From: Chryseobacterium scophthalmum
GTDB taxonomy: Bacteria; Bacteroidota; Bacteroidia; Flavobacteriales; Weeksellaceae
DNA: 64,000 bases
Direction: 5' to 3'
NCBI RefSeq assembly: GCF_900143185.1
Contig: NZ_FSRQ01000001.1
Coordinates: 186,001 to 250,000 of the forward strand
Position numbers and translations under genes: made by a program. Of the stretch, positions 31,322 to 41,348 are shown piece by piece. Positions within the stretch are counted from its first letter, which is position 1, and every line of letters starts with the position of its first letter. A model generated the notes under the pieces. That model made no database searches and had not been told where the DNA came from. It was given only the letters and a program-made list of their open reading frames with translations.

Positions 31322-31396
31322 TAAAAAATGCCCCGCAGATAGGCGAGGCGCTAAATGTTTTCACAACGGAATAATCCTTATTGTGAATTGCTTTCG
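31322..31396 (-). ncRNA. tracrRNA of the type II-C CRISPR-Cas system
   Basis: Read on the minus strand, GAAAGCAATTCACAA (31395-31381) is fully complementary to bases 2-16 of the crRNA-sense repeat. It is followed by TAAGGATTATTCCG, like the short nexus hairpin seen after the anti-repeat in other II-C tracrRNAs, then a hairpin (GCCTCGC at 31349-31343 with GCGGGGC at 31336-31330) and a U-run. A -7 box TAGATTTG (31408-31401) would start transcription at the first base or so of the anti-repeat. The RNA would be about 75 nt and base-pairs with crRNA to load Cas9. It points away from cas9. Boundaries are predicted. Confidence 0.85.
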
Positions 31397-31400
31397 GATA

Positions 31401-31408
31401 CAAATCTA
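31401..31408 (-). promoter_or_regulatory. -7 box of the tracrRNA promoter
   Basis: TAGATTTG on the minus strand fits TAnnTTTG exactly and ends five bases before the anti-repeat. No clear TTG lies 24 bases upstream, so the -33 box is weak. Confidence 0.55.
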
Positions 31409-31563
31409 AAAATAATATTTTTAATCAGTTTACGGTTTTCCACATTTTTAGCTTTATAAAGTTAAATAAAAAAAATAAATATTTAAAATGTATTGTGATT
31501 TATAAAATATATAATCTATATTTGTATTGTCAAAAATAAAGTCATCTAAGATAACTTTATTTA

Positions 31564-31635
31564 GGGGGTATAGCATAACGGCTAATGCGGCGGCCTGAAA
31601 ATTCGTACATACGGGTTCGATTCCCGTTACCTCCA
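31564..31635 (+). tRNA. tRNA-like gene, anticodon GAA (Phe), with a weak anticodon stem
   Basis: The acceptor GGGGGTA pairs with TACCTCC (one G-U), the D stem GCAT pairs with ATGC, and the T arm ACGGG-TTCGATT-CCCGT is canonical. The anticodon loop CTGAAAA reads GAA for Phe. The anticodon stem GCGGC/TTCGT has a C-U mismatch next to the loop and two G-U pairs, and the variable loop is only four bases. CCA is not encoded. It may be a genuine tRNA-Phe, a degenerate copy or a mobile-element tRNA. Confidence 0.55.
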
Positions 31636-31688
31636 CGACAAAATTAATGATTTATTTTCTTATAACGATTATATATTTAAATAAATCA

Positions 31689-31742
31689 GTTGTGAATTGC
31701 TTTCACATTTAGAGAGATTGCGAAAGTAATCTCTCTTTTTAA
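31689..31742 (+). ncRNA. Orphan crRNA-like element: 17-nt repeat fragment plus terminator
   Basis: GTTGTGAATTGCTTTCA (31689-31705) is identical to the first 17 bases of the crRNA-sense repeat, which include the whole tracrRNA-pairing part, and similarity stops there. Five bases later AGAGAGATT (31711-31719) pairs perfectly with 31728-31736, followed by a T-run: a plus-strand terminator. A possible -7 box TATATTTA is at 31672-31679; alternatively the RNA is the 3' trailer of the tRNA-like gene. It ends about 100 bases before cas9. It could act as a crRNA-like guide RNA, or be a decayed repeat. Confidence 0.55.
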
Positions 31743-31768: not shown

Positions 31769-31784
31769 ATACGGGAATCCGTAT
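31769..31784. promoter_or_regulatory. ATACGG inverted repeat upstream of cas9
   Basis: ATACGG and CCGTAT flank GAAT, about 55 bases before the cas9 start. The right arm overlaps an eight-base match (ATAAATCA, 31783-31790) to the sequence directly upstream of the orphan repeat. I see no clear TTG/TAnnTTTG promoter for cas9. Confidence 0.4.
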
Positions 31785-31839
31785 AAATCATATATCAAAA
31801 TATTTTATTTTTATACTTTCTTGAAAAAAACTTTTTGTT

Positions 31840-34800
31840 ATGGTGAAAAATATTTTAGGATTAGATTTAGGTGTTACTTCTATTGGATTTGCACATATTC
31901 TCGAAGGTAAAAATCCCGAACAATCTTCTATTAAAAAAATAGGAGTTCGTGTAAATCCTTTAACGACCGATGAACAAACCAATTTTGAAAAAGGAAAACC
32001 TGTTTCTGTAAATGCAGACAGAACTTTGAAACGTGGCGCAAGACGAAATCTCGACCGTTATCAAGATCGGAGAAAAAATCTTATTGATGCTTTATTGAAA
32101 GCTAATATTATTACAAATGAAACTATTTTAGCCGAGAACGGAAAAGACACAACTCATTCCACTTATCTTATTAGAGCAAAATCTGCGGTTGAAAAAATAG
32201 AGAAAGAAGAATTGGCTAGAGTTTTTTTAGCTATTAATAAAAAAAGAGGATATAAAAGCAGTAGAAAAGCAAAAAACGAGGATGAAGGTCAAATCATCGA
32301 CGGAATGGAAATCGCGAAAAAACTATACGAAGAAAACCTTACTCCAGGCCAATTGGCTTATCGGTTATTAAAAGAAGAGAAAAAGTATCTGCCTGATTTT
32401 TACCGTTCAGATTTGCAGTCGGAATTTGATAGAATCTGGAATTTTCAGAAACAATTTTACCCTGAAATTTTGACTGATGAATTTTATAAAGAACTAAAAG
32501 GAAAAGGGCAACGTGCGACCTCTGCCATGTTTTGGACAAAGTATGGGTTTAATACAGCAGACAATAAAGCGAAAACGAGAGAAGAGAAAAAACTGCAAGC
32601 TTATTTGTGGAGAAGCGAAGCGCTTAATAAGCAATTGGGAAAAGAAGAAGTTGCTTTTGTGGTTACTGAAATCAATAATAATCTTAATAATTCCAGCGGA
32701 TATTTAGGTGAAATCAGTGATAGAAGCAAAGAGTTATATTTTAACAATCAAACGGTTGGTCAATATTTGTATGAAAAGTTAAAAACAAATCCTCATACGA
32801 GATTGAAAAATCAGGTATTTTACCGTCAGGATTATTTAGATGAATTTGAGAGAATTTGGGAAATTCAGGCAAAATTTCATCCAGAATTAACGGAAAAATG
32901 GAAAACGGAAATTCGGGATATTATCATTTTCTATCAACGAAAACTAAAGTCGCAAAAAGGTTTGGTAAGTTTTTGTGAATTTGAAAGTCAGAAAAAAATC
33001 ATCAACGGACATAAGAAAACGATAGGCTTAAAAGTAGCTCCGAAATCTTCGCCTTTGTTTCAGGAATTTAAAATCTGGCAGGTTTTAAATAATGTTTTAG
33101 TCAGAAAAAAAGGAAGTAGAAAAAGAGTTGCAAAAGCAGATGCTCCAACTTTATTTGATGAAGAAAAGGAAATTTTTATTTTCGATTTGGAAACCAAGCA
33201 GAAATTATTTGATGAATTAAATAGTAAAGGAAATTTAAAATCTGCAAAAATCCTTGAACTTTTAGGTTATAAATCGACCGATTGGGAAATGAATTATTCC
33301 GAATTGGAAGGTAACAGAACGAATAAAATTTTATTTGATGCATATCTGAGAATTTTAGAATTGGAAGGGTATGACGAAGATCTATTGAAACTTCAAGGGA
33401 AAGACGACATTGATATTTCTGAGCTGAAAGCATCAGTTTGGGAAATAAAAGATATGGTAAAACGTGTTTTTGAAATATTGAATATCAATACAGAAATTTT
33501 AGAGTTTGATGCTGAGCTGGATGGAAAAGATTTCGAAAAACAAGCTTCTTATCAACTTTGGCATTTGCTGTATTCTTATCAGGAAGATAATTCTAAAACC
33601 GGAAATGATACTTTGTTTAGGCTTTTAGAAGAAAAATTTGGGTTCAAAAAAGAACATTCTCAGATTTTGGCAAACGTTGCTTTTTCGGATGATTATGGTA
33701 ACCTAAGTACGAAGGCAATGCGGAAAATTTATCCGCATATTAAAGAATTGACTTATGATAAAGCTTGCTTACAGGCGGGTTATAAACATTCTGCTTTATC
33801 TTTAACCAAAGAAGAAATTGCAAATCGTCCTTTGAAAAATCAATTAGAATTACTCAAAAAAAATAGTTTACGAAATCCTGTTGTTGAAAAAATATTGAAT
33901 CAATTGGTAAATGTTATCAACACTATCATTGAAACCAACAGCAAAAAAGACGAAGAAGGAAATATTACTGAATATTTCAAATTTGATGAAATACGTGTAG
34001 AACTGTCTCGTGATTTAAAGAAAAACGCAAAAGAAAGAGCAGAATTAACGACCAATATCAACGCTTCAAAAATTGCCCACGAAAAGATTTTTAAATTGCT
34101 TCAAAATGAATTTCATATTAAGAATCCAACTAGAAATGATATTATCCGTTACCGTTTGTATGAAGAGTTGAAAAATAATGGTTACAAAGATTTATATTCC
34201 AATACTTATATTTCAAGGGAAATTTTGTTCAGTAAACAGATTGATATCGACCATCTTATTCCTCAATCTAAAATGTTTGATGATAGTTTTTCAAACAAAA
34301 CTGTAGTTTTTAGAAAAGATAATTTAGACAAAGGAAACAGGACAGCCTTTGATTATATTTCAGAAAAATTTGGAGAAAACGGAATTGAAGATTTCAAATC
34401 AAGAATTGAAATGCTTTTCGAGCAAGGAAAGAAAAATAAAGAGGAAGGAATTTCTAAAGCCAAATATCAAAAATTATTAAAACAAGAAGCTGAAATTGGT
34501 GATGGTTTTATTGACAGAGATTTGCGCGACAGTCAATATATTGCTAAAAAAGCAAGGAATCTTTTATATGAAATCTGTAGAGTGGTAACGCCAACTACTG
34601 GAAGTGTTACTGCAAGATTGCGTGAAGATTGGGATTTAGTCAACATTATGCAGGAGCTTAATTTTGAAAAATTTAAAGCTTTGGGGTTAATTGAAAAAGT
34701 TGAGAAAAAAGATGGAAGCTTCAAAGAACGTATTGTAGATTGGAGCAAAAGAAACGACCATCGTCATCATGCAATGGATGCTTTGACGGTAGCTTTTACC

Positions 34801-36126
34801 AAACATAATCATATTCATTATCTAAATTTTTTAAATGCAAGAAAAAGCGAAAATCATAAAGAGCATAATGCAATTATCGGTATTGAAGATAAAGAAACGA
34901 CTTGGAAATATGATGATGAAGGAAATAAAAAAAGAGTTTTCAATTTGCCGATTCCAAATTTCAGAAAACAAGCTAAAGAACATTTAGAAAACGTTTTAGT
35001 TTCACATAAAGCTAAGAATAAAGTTGTAACCAGAAATAAAAACAAAATCAAATCTAAAAACGGCGAAAGAACTAAAGTTGAATTTACACCAAGAGGACAA
35101 TTGCACAAAGAAACTGTTTACGGGAAATATCAATATTACGTCAATAAAGAAGAAAAAATAAGTGCAAAATTTGATGAAGTAACCATTAATAAAGTGGCAA
35201 ATCCGACTTATAAGAAACTCTTACTTCAAAGGCTTTCCGAAAATGAAAACGATCCTAAAAAAGCATTTTCCGGGAAAAATGTTATGAGTAAAAATCCAAT
35301 TTATTTGAATGAAGAAAAAACTGAACTTTTCCCGGAAACTGTAAAATTAACTTGGCTGGAAGAAGATTATTCAATTAGAAAAGAGATCACGCCAGAGAAT
35401 TTTAAAGATATAAAAATCATTGAAAAAATTTTAGATGAAGGCATAAAACGAATTTTATTCAATCGCCTGAAGGAATTTGGAAATGACCCTAAAAAGGCAT
35501 TTTCAGATTTAGATAAAAATCCAATTTGGCTCAATGAAGCAAAAGGAATTTCTGTCAAAAGAGTGACTATTTCCGGAGTGAAAAATGCAGAATTTTTACA
35601 TTACAAAAAAGATCATTTAGGGAACGAAATTTTAGATGATAATGGTAAGAAAATTCCGGTAGATTTTGTGAGTACAGGGAATAATCATCATGTTGCTATT
35701 TACCGAGACGAAAAAGGAAATCTTCAGGAAAGAGTAGTGTCGTTGTTTGACGCGGTTCAGTTGGTCAATGCAGGAGAGTCTGTTATCGATAAAAACTATA
35801 ACCATGGTTTAGGTTGGCAATTTTTGTTCACAATGAAGCAAAATGAATACTTTATTTTCCCTAATGAAAAAACAGGGTTCAATCCTAACGAATTGGATTT
35901 ATTAGACCCTAAAAATAAAAATGTGATAAGTCCTAATTTGTTTAGAGTACAAAAATTAGCAACTAAGAATTATATGTTTAGGCATCATTTGGAAACTGCT
36001 GTTGAAGAAATGCAACAATTAAAAGATGTTGCTTATATAAGTATAAGAAGTACAAATCCTTTAGGGAATATTGTGAAAGTACGTCTCAATAATCTCGGAG
36101 ATATTGTAAAAATAGGAGAATATTAA
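31840..36126 (+). CDS. cas9: Type II-C CRISPR RNA-guided endonuclease Cas9
   Basis: The 1428-residue protein carries all nuclease motifs: RuvC-I ILGLDLGVTSIGFA (Asp9), an Arg-rich bridge helix (RTLKRGARRNLDRYQDRRK), RuvC-II IRVELSRDL (Glu721), HNH QIDIDHLIPQS (His805) and RuvC-III NDHRHHAMDALTVA (His977, Asp980). Both nuclease sites therefore look active. The order cas9-cas1-cas2 without csn2 or cas4 defines subtype II-C; the size fits the long Bacteroidetes branch. The C-terminal region contains a repeated unit around residues 1128-1155 and 1204-1232 (NDPKKAFS, then NPIYLNE or NPIWLNE). With tracrRNA and crRNA it cleaves DNA carrying a PAM, which cannot be read from the sequence. Confidence 0.98.
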   Translation: MVKNILGLDLGVTSIGFAHILEGKNPEQSSIKKIGVRVNPLTTDEQTNFEKGKPVSVNADRTLKRGARRNLDRYQDRRKNLIDALLKANIITNETILAENGKDTTHSTYLIRAKSAVEKIEKEELARVFLAINKKRGYKSSRKAKNEDEGQIIDGMEIAKKLYEENLTPGQLAYRLLKEEKKYLPDFYRSDLQSEFDRIWNFQKQFYPEILTDEFYKELKGKGQRATSAMFWTKYGFNTADNKAKTREEKKLQAYLWRSEALNKQLGKEEVAFVVTEINNNLNNSSGYLGEISDRSKELYFNNQTVGQYLYEKLKTNPHTRLKNQVFYRQDYLDEFERIWEIQAKFHPELTEKWKTEIRDIIIFYQRKLKSQKGLVSFCEFESQKKIINGHKKTIGLKVAPKSSPLFQEFKIWQVLNNVLVRKKGSRKRVAKADAPTLFDEEKEIFIFDLETKQKLFDELNSKGNLKSAKILELLGYKSTDWEMNYSELEGNRTNKILFDAYLRILELEGYDEDLLKLQGKDDIDISELKASVWEIKDMVKRVFEILNINTEILEFDAELDGKDFEKQASYQLWHLLYSYQEDNSKTGNDTLFRLLEEKFGFKKEHSQILANVAFSDDYGNLSTKAMRKIYPHIKELTYDKACLQAGYKHSALSLTKEEIANRPLKNQLELLKKNSLRNPVVEKILNQLVNVINTIIETNSKKDEEGNITEYFKFDEIRVELSRDLKKNAKERAELTTNINASKIAHEKIFKLLQNEFHIKNPTRNDIIRYRLYEELKNNGYKDLYSNTYISREILFSKQIDIDHLIPQSKMFDDSFSNKTVVFRKDNLDKGNRTAFDYISEKFGENGIEDFKSRIEMLFEQGKKNKEEGISKAKYQKLLKQEAEIGDGFIDRDLRDSQYIAKKARNLLYEICRVVTPTTGSVTARLREDWDLVNIMQELNFEKFKALGLIEKVEKKDGSFKERIVDWSKRNDHRHHAMDALTVAFTKHNHIHYLNFLNARKSENHKEHNAIIGIEDKETTWKYDDEGNKKRVFNLPIPNFRKQAKEHLENVLVSHKAKNKVVTRNKNKIKSKNGERTKVEFTPRGQLHKETVYGKYQYYVNKEEKISAKFDEVTINKVANPTYKKLLLQRLSENENDPKKAFSGKNVMSKNPIYLNEEKTELFPETVKLTWLEEDYSIRKEITPENFKDIKIIEKILDEGIKRILFNRLKEFGNDPKKAFSDLDKNPIWLNEAKGISVKRVTISGVKNAEFLHYKKDHLGNEILDDNGKKIPVDFVSTGNNHHVAIYRDEKGNLQERVVSLFDAVQLVNAGESVIDKNYNHGLGWQFLFTMKQNEYFIFPNEKTGFNPNELDLLDPKNKNVISPNLFRVQKLATKNYMFRHHLETAVEEMQQLKDVAYISIRSTNPLGNIVKVRLNNLGDIVKIGEY

Positions 36127-37569: not shown

Positions 37570-37845
37570 GGCTTGATATTTTTTAAGTGCACTAGTTGTT
37601 ATTTTTAATTATGTCCAATTTTTCTTTTGGCTTTAGTTTATCTTATGACTTTTATAGTTGAAATATTAAGCTTGGTAATAATGTAAGTTTTGTGGTTGCC
37701 GCTAGAATTACTTTAGTTTTAATATTGGTATTCTTACGAATCAAAAAATGACAGAAATTAATTTTAAACTCCATCTAAAAACGCAAAATTTGAAATTCTA
37801 AAAACAAATAAAACCTACTGATAAACAGTAGGTTTAGCTTTTGAG
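37570..37845. other. Probable CRISPR leader, cas2-proximal
   Basis: This 276-bp AT-rich stretch lies between cas2 and the first perfect repeat. The far end of the array has a decayed repeat, so new spacers are most likely added here. No gene is visible. It contains the terminator at 37800-37835. Confidence 0.55.
37800..37835 (-). terminator. Terminator for minus-strand array transcription
   Basis: AAACCTACTG (37811-37820) pairs perfectly with CAGTAGGTTT (37826-37835), and the minus-strand tail is TTTATTTGTTTT. It ends transcription leaving the array on the minus strand, 10 bases after the last repeat in that direction. Confidence 0.7.
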
Positions 37846-40800
37846 GTTGTGTTATATCTCAAAGATACTCAAAAATGAAAGCAATTCACAACACTAATGG
37901 TGGTGCTGGGTACCCATCGTATGTTGTGTTATATCTCAAAGATACTCAAAAATGAAAGCAATTCACAACGCTAAGGCCCTGCAAGGGCTTGCGCCTGGAG
38001 TTGTGTTATATCTCAAAGATACTCAAAAATGAAAGCAATTCACAACCGGTCGGCAGGTAGTAGCACCAGCGTAAGTGTTGTGTTATATCTCAAAGATACT
38101 CAAAAATGAAAGCAATTCACAACGCAGCGGCGAACTTTTGTACTTCTTCCTTAGTTGTGTTATATCTCAAAGATACTCAAAAATGAAAGCAATTCACAAC
38201 TGTTAATTTACAAGCCATTGTATTTATATTGTTGTGTTATATCTCAAAGATACTCAAAAATGAAAGCAATTCACAACAGGGGGTCGAGTGATATTTATTT
38301 ATACATTGTTGTGTTATATCTCAAAGATACTCAAAAATGAAAGCAATTCACAACCTTGATCTTATTGGAAAGTTGAAAGCAGAAGTTGTGTTATATCTCA
38401 AAGATACTCAAAAATGAAAGCAATTCACAACATAGTGGAAGCTCTCTTATAAATTTGAATAGTTGTGTTATATCTCAAAGATACTCAAAAATGAAAGCAA
38501 TTCACAACCCATACGTCGGAAACACCTACTCGCCCTTTGTTGTGTTATATCTCAAAGATACTCAAAAATGAAAGCAATTCACAACTTTGACCTTTTCTTT
38601 AGGAAGATCGATTTTGTTGTGTTATATCTCAAAGATACTCAAAAATGAAAGCAATTCACAACATAATCTTCAACCTAAACAACCAGAATTATGTTGTGTT
38701 ATATCTCAAAGATACTCAAAAATGAAAGCAATTCACAACACATCAGGACAAGTAGTTGTGATGGGTAGAGTTGTGTTATATCTCAAAGATACTCAAAAAT
38801 GAAAGCAATTCACAACTGGATGATAAAGGAGTCGAACCTTCGAAGCGTTGTGTTATATCTCAAAGATACTCAAAAATGAAAGCAATTCACAACTATCGGA
38901 AGTTTTGGGAATTACAGTAACTGGTTGTGTTATATCTCAAAGATACTCAAAAATGAAAGCAATTCACAACCCGTCATGATGTCTACCGGATAATCTTTCG
39001 GTTGTGTTATATCTCAAAGATACTCAAAAATGAAAGCAATTCACAACGCAGTCACAGATGAGCCACATGTCCTTTGGGTTGTGTTATATCTCAAAGATAC
39101 TCAAAAATGAAAGCAATTCACAACGATGATAAAAATCGTTTAGCCTTTTATGATGTTGTGTTATATCTCAAAGATACTCAAAAATGAAAGCAATTCACAA
39201 CCCTGAATCCCATAGAATAACATATTTATTTGTTGTGTTATATCTCAAAGATACTCAAAAATGAAAGCAATTCACAACTGAAGAATACACTCAGTTAGCG
39301 GAAGCAATGTTGTGTTATATCTCAAAGATACTCAAAAATGAAAGCAATTCACAACATTAAACTTATGACACATTCAATTGGTTGGGTTGTGTTATATCTC
39401 AAAGATACTCAAAAATGAAAGCAATTCACAACGTATTGCCAATCAGGGATAAATTGATTAACGTTGTGTTATATCTCAAAGATACTCAAAAATGAAAGCA
39501 ATTCACAACCGGCTAATAAACTCAATACACCTCCCATAAGTTGTGTTATATCTCAAAGATACTCAAAAATGAAAGCAATTCACAACATGCCATCTGTCAG
39601 TAAATATGGTAGCTCGGTTGTGTTATATCTCAAAGATACTCAAAAATGAAAGCAATTCACAACATGCCATCTGTCAGTAAATATGGTAGCTCGGTTGTGT
39701 TATATCTCAAAGATACTCAAAAATGAAAGCAATTCACAACGTTCTGAATTTACCAAGAAATCACCTTCCAGTTGTGTTATATCTCAAAGATACTCAAAAA
39801 TGAAAGCAATTCACAACCAGCTACTCAATTAGCTACAATGGCTCAGGGTTGTGTTATATCTCAAAGATACTCAAAAATGAAAGCAATTCACAACACAGTA
39901 CAAAAACGGGACTTGAACTTGTTGTTGTGTTATATCTCAAAGATACTCAAAAATGAAAGCAATTCACAACACAGTACAAAAACGGGACTTGAACTTGTTG
40001 TTGTGTTATATCTCAAAGATACTCAAAAATGAAAGCAATTCACAACACAGTACAAAAACGGGACTTGAACTTGTTGTTGTGTTATATCTCAAAGATACTC
40101 AAAAATGAAAGCAATTCACAACACCCTTGTGGGGCGGCTGTTAGAGATTGTTGTTGTGTTATATCTCAAAGATACTCAAAAATGAAAGCAATTCACAACG
40201 CAAGGGCGAAAACTGACAATGACAGGTGAGTTGTGTTATATCTCAAAGATACTCAAAAATGAAAGCAATTCACAACTCAATGAGAGGTGGATCGAGATTC
40301 AGAGAAGTTGTGTTATATCTCAAAGATACTCAAAAATGAAAGCAATTCACAACTATCATTTCTGCAGTTAAGTAATTAAGTCCGTTGTGTTATATCTCAA
40401 AGATACTCAAAAATGAAAGCAATTCACAACAAAGAAGTATTCCGTTATCAATGACCAGTGGTTGTGTTATATCTCAAAGATACTCAAAAATGAAAGCAAT
40501 TCACAACATACGATTGAACCTTCCAGAACTTCAGATTGTTGTGTTATATCTCAAAGATACTCAAAAATGAAAGCAATTCACAACACGAGATGCAGTTGCT
40601 ATTGCTTTGAACAAGTTGTGTTATATCTCAAAGATACTCAAAAATGAAAGCAATTCACAACCCAACGCCAAACGAGCAAACAACATTTAACGTTGTGTTA
40701 TATCTCAAAGATACTCAAAAATGAAAGCAATTCACAACTAACAAATGTTCTTGAAACTCTTTTTCAAAGTTGTGTTATATCTCAAAGATACTCAAAAATG

Positions 40801-41348
40801 AAAGCAATTCACAACAACGGTTTAAATCAATTAAAAAACTTAGAAGTTGTGTTATATCTCAAAGATACTCAAAAATGAAAGCAATTCACAACATAATACA
40901 ATATTCGCATTTGGTTTTGTGAGGTGTGTTATATCTCAAAGATACTCAAAAATGAAAGCAATTCACAACAGACTAAGCAAATGACTGAGATTAAGATGTG
41001 TTGTGTTATATCTCAAAGATACTCAAAAATGAAAGCAATTCACAACACTGTGGCAAATGTAATAAGAAGATGTAGGGTTGTGTTATATCTCAAAGATACT
41101 CAAAAATGAAAGCAATTCACAACCCGTTTTCAATGTTGAAGATTTCAAGTGGTGTTGTGTTATATCTCAAAGATACTCAAAAATGAAAGCAATTCACAAC
41201 AGATCTCACATGGTCGGCAATATCATTTCTGTTGTGTTATATCTCAAAGATACTCAAAAATGAAAGCAATTCACAACACGACCTTTCAAGTTGTCCTTAA
41301 TAGCATCGTTGTGTTATATCTCAAAGATACTCAAAAATGAAAGCAATT
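37846..41348 (-). CRISPR. Type II-C CRISPR array, 46 repeats of 47 nt, 45 spacers
   Basis: The plus-strand repeat begins GTTGTGTTATATCTC and ends GAAAGCAATTCACAAC, with GTTGTG/CACAAC inverted ends. Spacers are 30 nt (period 77) except three of 29 nt near 39895-40075. The repeat at 40923 has one substitution (GGTGTG), and the last one (41308) loses its final six bases, marking the old end. Complementarity to tracrRNA shows that crRNAs come from the minus strand, where each repeat contains TTG and TATCTTTG 24 bases apart. Spacers at 39587 and 39664 are identical, as are those at 39895, 39971 and 40047. Short reading frames across the array are not genes. Confidence 0.98.

What the first reader, a model, noticed from the sequence alone, without database searches (positions are those of the whole stretch)
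31689..31742. Orphan crRNA-like RNA just upstream of cas9: exact tracrRNA-pairing half of the repeat plus its own terminator
The 17 bases at 31689-31705 equal bases 1-17 of the crRNA-sense repeat, and the tracrRNA pairs with bases 2-16. Similarity stops right after, and a perfect 9-bp terminator follows in the plus direction. What is kept is the part needed to load onto tracrRNA-Cas9. The sequence directly before it would act as the guide; its last eight bases (ATAAATCA) recur at 31783-31790 in the cas9 upstream region, over an inverted repeat. Repressive crRNA-like RNAs and long tracrRNAs that make Cas9 control its own promoter are known in other systems. This could be such a regulator in a flavobacterial II-C locus, perhaps freed from the tRNA trailer. 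An 8-base match in AT-rich DNA can be chance, and a decayed repeat is the plain alternative.
Basis: partly seen in the sequence, partly recalled or inferred. Interest (0 to 1): 0.85.

Follow-up and report, generated by a model that had tools for sequence, protein, structure and literature searches.

The report
Self-repressing Cas9 guide RNA candidate
Next to its cas9 gene this Chryseobacterium-like bacterium carries a small predicted RNA, a tRNA look-alike fused to half a CRISPR repeat, whose guide part matches the RNA's own promoter, as similar RNAs do in a number of relatives, so Cas9 may well use it to switch that promoter off rather than to fight viruses.

Summary
The orphan half repeat is real and is probably no decayed repeat. 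It ends a predicted transcript: promoter, hairpin, tRNA-like domain, guide hairpin, half repeat, terminator. The guide instead matches its own promoter, on the opposite strand between the -33 and -7 boxes: 8-nt seed, bulge, 12 more matches (0 of 500 shuffles). The flank CAATAC fits NNATNC, a PAM read from this locus's own spacers (5 of 6 protospacer rows with at most 2 mismatches). Among 274 tracrRNA loci, 27 orphan half repeats passed a strict filter; 20 have a 9-13 nt guide match within 600 nt (0.68 expected; 16 under a harsher mask, 0.60 expected). In 24 of 27 the best match (the window: joint best) is upstream on the opposite strand. In divergent loci that site lies before cas9. Best reading: crRNA-like RNAs that make type II-C Cas9 bind, without cutting, and repress their own promoter. 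They work like CreA/CreR or scaRNA, with II-C Cas9 and, here, a tRNA-like leader. All evidence is sequence; expression and repression are untested.

The parts
31490..31516 (-). Predicted Cas9 target: protospacer GATTATATATTTTATAAATCA (31516 down to 31496) plus PAM CAATAC (31495 down to 31490)
   Evidence: Guide matches 8-nt seed + 12 distal nt around a bulge, 0 of 500 shuffles; PAM NNATNC from own spacers; same kind of site and flank CAATAC in L001
31493..31524 (+). Predicted promoter of the element: -33 TTG (31493-31495), 21 nt, -7 TATATTTG (31517-31524)
   Evidence: Sequence; the Bacteroidota consensus TTG/TAnnTTTG is recalled, from no call; TAnnTTTG starts 18-40 nt from the target in 22 of 24 elements, against about 5% of upstream positions
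31534..31562 (+). 5' hairpin AAATAAAGT...ACTTTATTT next to the tRNA-like domain
   Evidence: Fold; similar hairpins in L001, L050, L024, L253, none seen in L283
31564..31635 (+). tRNA-like domain (ARAGORN: tRNA-Phe GAA, 31564-31636), anticodon arm degenerate
   Evidence: 60.2 bits; acceptor 7/7, T stem 5/5, D stem 4/4 (G-U allowed) in six loci, anticodon region not kept; canonical tRNA-Phe genes elsewhere in the genome
31648..31688 (+). Hairpin TGATTTATTT (31648-31657) / AAATAAATCA (31679-31688) that encloses the guide seed
   Evidence: Folds; L050 covaries (TGATTTATAT/ATATAAATCA)
31667..31688 (+). Guide GATTATATATTTAAATAAATCA; seed ATAAATCA 31681-31688
31689..31705 (+). Orphan half repeat, identical to repeat bases 1-17; bases 31690-31704 can pair with the tracrRNA
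31711..31741 (+). Intrinsic-terminator-like stem-loop (31711-31736) and T run
31330..31408 (-). tracrRNA: anti-repeat 31395-31381, terminator 31349-31330, predicted -7 box 31408-31401 (by eye)
   Evidence: tracr core found in 274 distinct loci
31770..31783 (.). Palindrome TACGGGAATCCGTA upstream of the cas9 promoter; role unknown
   Evidence: similar palindromes in several relatives
31783..31790 (+).
31840..36126 (+). cas9, type II-C, 1428 aa (by tracrRNA/cas9 locus and homologues; type assignment recalled)
37770..41345 (-). CRISPR array, 47-nt repeats, 29-30-nt spacers (45 exact copies of the 16-nt repeat start)

Best explanation
The site is the 3' part of a roughly 210-nt predicted RNA that makes Cas9 repress the RNA's own promoter. 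Shown by sequence: a promoter-like box, a 5' hairpin, a tRNA-like domain, a hairpin holding a guide, the tracrRNA-pairing half repeat and a terminator-like stem; a guide match with a fitting PAM at the element's own promoter; the same design with other guide/target pairs in relatives. Inferred: RNase P / tRNase Z cut at the tRNA-like domain and free the crRNA-like part; tracrRNA pairs with the half repeat and opens the seed hairpin; Cas9 binds the promoter through the 8-nt seed; the bulge after the seed stops a full R-loop, so Cas9 blocks RNA polymerase at the -33 region instead of cutting. Output then falls when free Cas9-tracrRNA is plentiful and rises when crRNAs occupy Cas9 or Cas9 is lost or inhibited. 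In divergent relatives the site also lies in the stretch before cas9. In the window any effect on cas9 would have to come from read-through or competition and is the least certain step.
For: (1) 20 of 27 strictly filtered orphans have a 9-13 nt 3'-anchored guide match within 600 nt, against 0.68 expected and at most 3 in 200 dinucleotide shuffles; with a 75-nt instead of 50-nt mask 16 of 27 (0.60 expected); with all 49 matches of at most 2 mismatches 23 of 49 (1.79 expected, max 5). (2) In 24 of 27 the best match (window: joint best) is upstream on the opposite strand; 22 of those 24 have TAnnTTTG starting 18-40 nt away, where about 5% of upstream positions would. (3) Guides and targets change together: AGATTAGTAT in L005, ATATTAGTAT in L012, TGAGTAGTAT in L019, AGATTATAGT in L020; also L064 against L074. 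(4) Window: 8 + 12 matches with a bulge, 0 of 500 shuffles, best shuffle 15; L001 the same with one covarying base; L024 p 0.002. (5) PAM NNATNC from own spacers: 5 of 6 protospacer rows with at most 2 mismatches, 4 of 5 spacers; the own-promoter flank CAATAC fits. (6) A net one extra guide base just after the seed, followed by 5-12 more matches, in 8 of 22 elements examined (window, L001, L024, L064, L074, L090, L096, L283).
Against: No expression or repression data; the sigma-70-type promoter scan found no excess (5 against 4.9), though it does not model Bacteroidota promoters. The window's 8-nt seed alone is not significant (p 0.22) and ties with the 31783 site; the case needs the bulged match, the PAM and the relatives. 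I had seen the CAATAC flank before reading the PAM from the spacers. One row with 1 mismatch (spacer 28, CATAAT) does not fit the PAM; of two rows with 3 mismatches one fits; none of nine rows with 4-6 mismatches fits. L001 is closely related to the window, class C loci and part of class D are related to each other, leaving about a dozen independent guide families (my count). 3 of 27 orphans show no such target; orphans with 2 mismatches show little excess (3 of 22 with 9 or more nt, 1.16 expected). The seed is base-paired in the predicted free RNA. In L024 and L283 the element does not lie between tracrRNA and cas9. In the window the target is not the cas9 promoter, so the benefit of the loop is unexplained.
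Confidence: 0.75

Rival explanations
1. CreTA-like addiction module for Cas9: the tRNA-like part (or the 5' domain in other classes) is a harmful RNA kept off by its co-transcribed guide, so losing Cas9 would harm the cell.
For: The promoter that the guide matches would drive the tRNA-like domain and the guide together; the tRNA-like domain keeps acceptor, T and D stems but no consistent anticodon arm in six loci; known CreT toxins sequester tRNAs (PMC8501985, abstract and passages).
Against: No toxicity evidence; acceptor and T-stem conservation is equally expected of a processing signal; close relatives lack the element.
Confidence: 0.2
2. CreR-like regulator that represses cas9 through the 8-base site at 31783-31790.
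For: Exact 8-mer 21 nt upstream of the predicted cas9 -7 box (31812-31819, by eye); in several class B/D relatives the target does lie in the stretch before cas9.
Against: Flank TATATC does not fit NNATNC; L001 lacks the site; 8 nt is within chance.
Confidence: 0.06
3. tracrRNA/Cas9 sponge: the half repeat only occupies tracrRNA-Cas9 and the guide has no target role.
For: Half repeat and terminator would suffice for pairing; the seed is sequestered in a predicted hairpin.
Against: Does not predict guide-promoter matches, PAM fit or one orientation.
Confidence: 0.08
4. A protein operator duplicated as an inverted copy near the promoter and before the half repeat; Cas9 is not involved.
For: Promoter site, hairpin arm and seed are copies of one short sequence; inverted repeats are common operators.
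Against: Matches are anchored at the repeat junction in about a dozen unrelated sequences, each beside a half repeat, with a flank fitting the spacer-derived PAM in the window.
Confidence: 0.06
5. Decayed repeat behind a tRNA gene.
For: Only half a repeat is present; accessory distribution; in most loci the half repeat equals the commonest tracr type, so its match says little.
Against: Exact 17-nt match in window and L001, own-variant half repeats in L053, L124 and L186 and near-match in L050, terminator-like stems downstream in the loci viewed, guide-target matches.
Confidence: 0.03

Closest known systems
CreA of CreTA modules (type I CRISPR-Cas)
   Same: crRNA-like RNA from degenerate ectopic repeats; guides the Cas effector to repress a neighbouring RNA gene by partial match (PMC9458426 and PMC8501985: abstracts and passages; review PMC12737573, passages)
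   Different: Effector here is II-C Cas9 with tracrRNA; the guide lies in the transcript whose promoter it matches; toxicity of the tRNA-like domain is untested
CreR (review: type I and V-A)
   Same: Cas-guided autoregulation by a crRNA-like RNA; divergent relatives (class B/D) have the target in the stretch before cas9
   Different: Type II-C; in the window the target is the element's own promoter, not the cas promoter (PMC12737573, passages)
scaRNA of Francisella novicida (II-B)
   Same: Small RNA outside the array with a repeat part that uses Cas9 for transcriptional repression (PMC9458426 passage; PMC6199352 abstract)
   Different: That scaRNA has 15 bp to a lipoprotein 5' UTR (same passage); here 8-13 nt seeds to the element's own promoter. 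The predicted II-C scaRNAs of PMC6199352 (sections 16-17 read) are in Neisseria and Pasteurella
tracr-L of S. pyogenes (II-A)
   Same: Cas9 held at a promoter by a short match; 11 complementary nt were used in a test guide (PMC11417352, passages)
   Different: tracr-L is one RNA holding guide and tracr; here a separate half repeat would pair with the ordinary tracrRNA
Engineered tRNA-gRNA fusions
   Same: A tRNA is used with a guide RNA so that tRNA processing frees it (titles and abstract starts only)
   Different: This would be a natural tRNA-like/guide fusion; processing is untested

Membership tests
CreR | Repeat-derived RNA able to load the Cas effector | tested here: inconclusive
   17-nt half repeat, 15 nt complementary to the tracrRNA; loading itself not tested
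CreR | Partial guide match with PAM in the cas promoter | tested here: not met
   Window: the 31783 site lacks the PAM and is absent in L001. Relatives L005, L012, L019, L020, L101, L102 and others have the match in the stretch before cas9
CreA / CreTA | Guide partially matches the promoter of a neighbouring RNA gene, with PAM | tested here: met
   Own promoter, 8 + 12 nt, CAATAC
CreA / CreTA | Repressed RNA is toxic | not testable with these tools
   tRNA-like domain described only
CreA / CreTA | Type I effector | tested here: not met
   The locus is a cas9/tracrRNA locus
scaRNA | Own promoter and terminator, repeat homology, outside the array | tested here: met
   promoter by recalled consensus only
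scaRNA | Cas9-dependent repression of an endogenous gene | not testable with these tools
   Needs RNA and reporter experiments
tracr-L | Guide and tracrRNA in one molecule | tested here: not met
   tracrRNA is a separate - strand gene at 31408-31330
Functional tRNA-Phe gene | Intact anticodon arm with conserved anticodon | tested here: not met
   ARAGORN anticodons GAA, UAU, GAA, UAU, AUU, UCU in window, L001, L050, L024, L253, L283; arm not kept

The most novel reading that the evidence does not exclude
Bacteroidota II-C CRISPR loci repeatedly evolved autonomous self-repressing guide genes, in which a processing or toxic RNA domain (tRNA-like in the window's class, another structured domain in class D) is fused to a short-seed, often bulged guide that turns catalytically active Cas9 into a binding-only repressor of that same gene: a type II counterpart of CreTA/CreR and a natural tRNA-guide fusion.
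Probability: 0.35. Interest if true: 0.9.

Novelty: new variant of a known kind. Interest (0 to 1): 0.78.

Why it matters
The review read here (passages) places CreR-type cas autoregulation in types I and V-A; II-A has tracr-L and II-B has scaRNA. A set of guide/target pairs that change together would extend RNA-guided self-control to the II-C Cas9s of Bacteroidota and offer ready test points (seed, PAM, bulge) for how Cas9 binds without cutting. An extra guide base just after the seed, recurring in unrelated guides, could be a natural design rule for cleavage-proof guides. A tRNA-like domain ahead of a guide would be a natural version of an engineered trick; whether it is a processing signal or a toxin is directly testable.

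Tried and rejected
Rejected: the 31783 cas9-promoter target (no PAM, not in L001). Rejected: decayed repeat. Rejected: the tRNA as the genome's needed tRNA-Phe. Three pattern searches failed to find another; then 66 tRNA matches and ARAGORN on the 64 loci taken (30, 34) showed canonical tRNA-Phe at C1:1862785 and C1:1862974 and a third tRNA-Phe in a tRNA cluster on C4. PAM from phage and plasmid records failed (no usable protospacer). A PAM check on a second group (L074/L064 spacers) gave one protospacer with 2 mismatches, flank AAAAGT, fitting NNAAA but n = 1. Genome-wide 10-nt seed + PAM sites: 2, against 0 in the reversed control, neither convincing. Rfam gave nothing for the class D domain in six loci. 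No structure prediction, homologous-protein search or RNA model was run.

Rows dropped and choices made late: one search gave 49 half-repeat matches with at most 2 mismatches and set 6 more aside as tracr-like. The cut at 1 mismatch (27 kept, 22 not) and the 50-nt mask were chosen, whose 75-nt mask hid the class B targets; therefore repeats the count for both masks and all 49. Among the 22, L346 (10 nt, upstream, opposite strand) fits the pattern; L338 (10 nt) and L119 (9 nt) are in the other orientation. L165 (11 nt) and L206 (7 nt) start GCTGTG and fall outside the later filter. One search examined 22 of the 24 elements (not L053, L186). 29 duplicate loci and 6 without a tracr core were left out. 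One search used a faulty pattern that could not match the TTGTGATTT variant; one search replaces it.

Full report
Observation. The 17 bases at 31689-31705 equal bases 1-17 of the 47-nt repeat. The 16-mer is found once on the + strand of the whole genome and 45 times on the - strand, in the array. The terminator-like stem at 31711-31736 was called independently. The window lies on a 2.2-Mb contig. The genus appears to be Chryseobacterium: L084, from the same genus, has the same element sequence as L001, which is named C. luquanense.

Relatives. I took 80 cas9 loci from named genomes, the best of 397, a genus-wide cas9 search (88 of 173 genomes with any match) and tracr-core searches of family (147 of 320 genomes), class (54 of 395) and order (54 of 395), then fetched stretches. 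After removing duplicates by a 135-nt signature, 274 loci with a tracr core remained; stretches differ in length, so counts of elements are lower bounds. A scan for half repeats outside arrays, using each locus's own tracr half, gave 49 matches with at most 2 mismatches in 13, plus 6 set aside as tracr-like. That scan favours own-variant matches by design. A degenerate scan gave 35 rows: 20 with 0, 5 with 1 and 10 with 2-5 mismatches to the own tracr half; only 10 rows lie in loci with an uncommon tracr half, and 3 of these (L053, L124, L186) match it exactly. So the half repeat's own-variant match is suggestive, not strong.

Guide targets. For the 27 orphans with at most 1 mismatch I looked for the longest exact match of the guide's 3' end within 600 nt, leaving out the element and 50 nt upstream. 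Twenty have 9-13 nt; 0.68 are expected from 200 dinucleotide shuffles, with at most 3 in any shuffle. A repeat gave 20 against 0.63; a 75-nt mask gave 16 against 0.60; all 49 matches gave 23 against 1.79 (at most 5); the 22 with 2 mismatches alone gave 3 against 1.16. The window, L001, L024 and L053 have 8 nt. One L005 orphan and L237 have no match of 8 or more, and L129 an unconvincing one. In 24 of 27 the best match (in the window tied with the 31783 site) is upstream and on the opposite strand. In 22 of those 24 a TAnnTTTG box starts 18-40 nt downstream of the site on the element's strand; a box within a like distance is present for about 5% of upstream positions. Guides differ while targets follow: AGATTAGTAT in L005, ATATTAGTAT in L012, TGAGTAGTAT in L019, AGATTATAGT in L020, ATTGAATCG in L064, GATTAAATCG in L074.

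Classes (my grouping). A: + strand with a tRNA-like domain (window, L001, L050, L253 between tracrRNA and cas9; L024, L283 on the other side of the tracrRNA). B: - strand, divergent from cas9 (L005, L012, L019, L020). C: + strand, on the other side of the tracrRNA (L064, L074, L090, L096, L100). D: - strand between tracrRNA and cas9 (L101, L102, L124, L130, L176, L186, L209, L212), seven of which I read in full, with a looser common 5' domain. L053 is unplaced. In B and in the D loci that I read the target lies in the stretch before cas9, near promoter-like boxes on both strands; L124 and L186 have two copies of the target.

The window's target. The 8-nt seed alone is not significant (p 0.22) and fits two places. 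Allowing one small bulge, the guide GATTATATATTTAAATAAATCA matches the - strand at 31516-31496 (GATTATATATTTTATAAATCA) with 8 + 12 bases; 0 of 500 shuffles reach this, the best having 15. L001 has GATTATATGTTT in both guide and target (0 of 500). L024 has GTATTATAAT in both with the same AA-to-T difference (p 0.002). Of 22 elements examined, 8 show a net one extra guide base after the seed followed by 5-12 more matches; in the other 14 little matches beyond the seed.

PAM. Forty-one unique spacers of the window array were searched in 171 genomes of the genus. With at most 2 mismatches there are 6 protospacer rows outside arrays: flanks CAATTC, CAATCC (two rows, one spacer), TTATTC, TGATAC and CATAAT. 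Five rows and 4 of 5 spacers fit NNATNC; the spacer-28 row, a tRNA-like match, does not. Of two rows with 3 mismatches AGATAC fits and CGACAC does not; none of nine rows with 4-6 mismatches fits. The own-promoter flank is CAATAC in the window and in L001 and fits; I had seen it before I read the PAM. The 31783 flank TATATC does not fit. In other loci the flanks look consistent by group, NNGTT (L005, L012, L019, L020, L024, L053) or NNAAA (L064, L074, L090, L096, L100, L101, L102, L124, L130, L186, L209, L212, L253); L050, L176 and L283 fit neither group cleanly. This was not tested with spacers except one row.

Anatomy. The site fills the interval between the -33 TTG (31493-31495, inside the PAM) and the -7 TATATTTG (31517-31524). 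Folds of the window, L001, L050, L024 and L253 show, with differences, a 5' hairpin, a tRNA-like part, a hairpin that pairs the seed (TGATTTATTT/AAATAAATCA in the window) and a terminator stem; L283 folds differently. In six loci the tRNA-like domain has 7/7 acceptor, 5/5 T-stem and 4/4 D-stem pairs (G-U allowed, found by a search for the best pairing) with partly different sequences, but the anticodon arm and anticodon are not kept. Canonical tRNA-Phe genes exist elsewhere. The element is missing in L002, L086 and L109; in L001 what looks like the original palindromic cas9 promoter still lies on the tracr side of the insertion.

How it probably works. By sequence the RNA can pair with tracrRNA and reach its own promoter with a fitting PAM. 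The rest (transcription, processing at the tRNA-like domain, loading, binding without cutting, repression) is inferred. A short match is in the range used with tracr-L, where a guide with 11 complementary nt was directed at the cas promoter (PMC11417352, passages). In divergent loci cas9 would be co-repressed. In the window the effect on cas9 is open, and an addiction role for the tRNA-like domain is possible.

Known systems. CreR is described for types I and V-A (PMC12737573, passages). CreA represses a toxic RNA through type I Cascade (PMC9458426 passages; PMC8501985 abstract and passages). scaRNAs were predicted in II-C Neisseria and Pasteurella (PMC6199352, abstract and sections 16-17). 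A 2026 paper on a Neisseria II-C scaRNA was seen only in listings with the start of its abstract (PMC13431127). I found no report of such elements in Bacteroidota II-C loci in the listings, which cover only open-licence PMC papers; one likely relevant survey, known to me from a reference list and recall (PMC10450183), was not held, so it may already mention some of these repeats.

Noticed in passing
Riemerella phage RAP44 HQ396194.1 31593-31701 (L446) and CRP19 OR089151.1 29241-29490 (L447): Phage genomes hold an intergenic II-C-type mini CRISPR array (one spacer in RAP44, several units in CRP19) followed by a terminator-like stem (by eye), next to a gene annotated DNA-damage-inducible protein D.
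   Followed up: partly
L124, L209, L212; looser in L130, L176, L101, L102; between tracrRNA and cas9: A - strand class of element carries a common 5' domain around TGACGAG...AAGGTCCAAACTT (by eye); no Rfam match for it up to E = 1 in the six loci searched (L209, L212, L102, L101, L130, L176).
   Followed up: partly
31770-31783 and several relatives: Palindrome TACGGnnnnCCGTA between the tracrRNA and cas9 promoters recurs in several loci, also where the element is absent; no role known to me.
   Followed up: no
37770-41345: One spacer is present three times in a row and another twice; two spacers (the triplicated one and GCTTCGAAGG...) look like tRNA 3' ends.
   Followed up: no
own genome C2:378217-378232: A 10-nt seed match of the guide plus PAM lies at the start of a Bcp-type peroxiredoxin-like ORF (name by eye); I estimate about one such site by chance, the reversed control had none.
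   Followed up: partly
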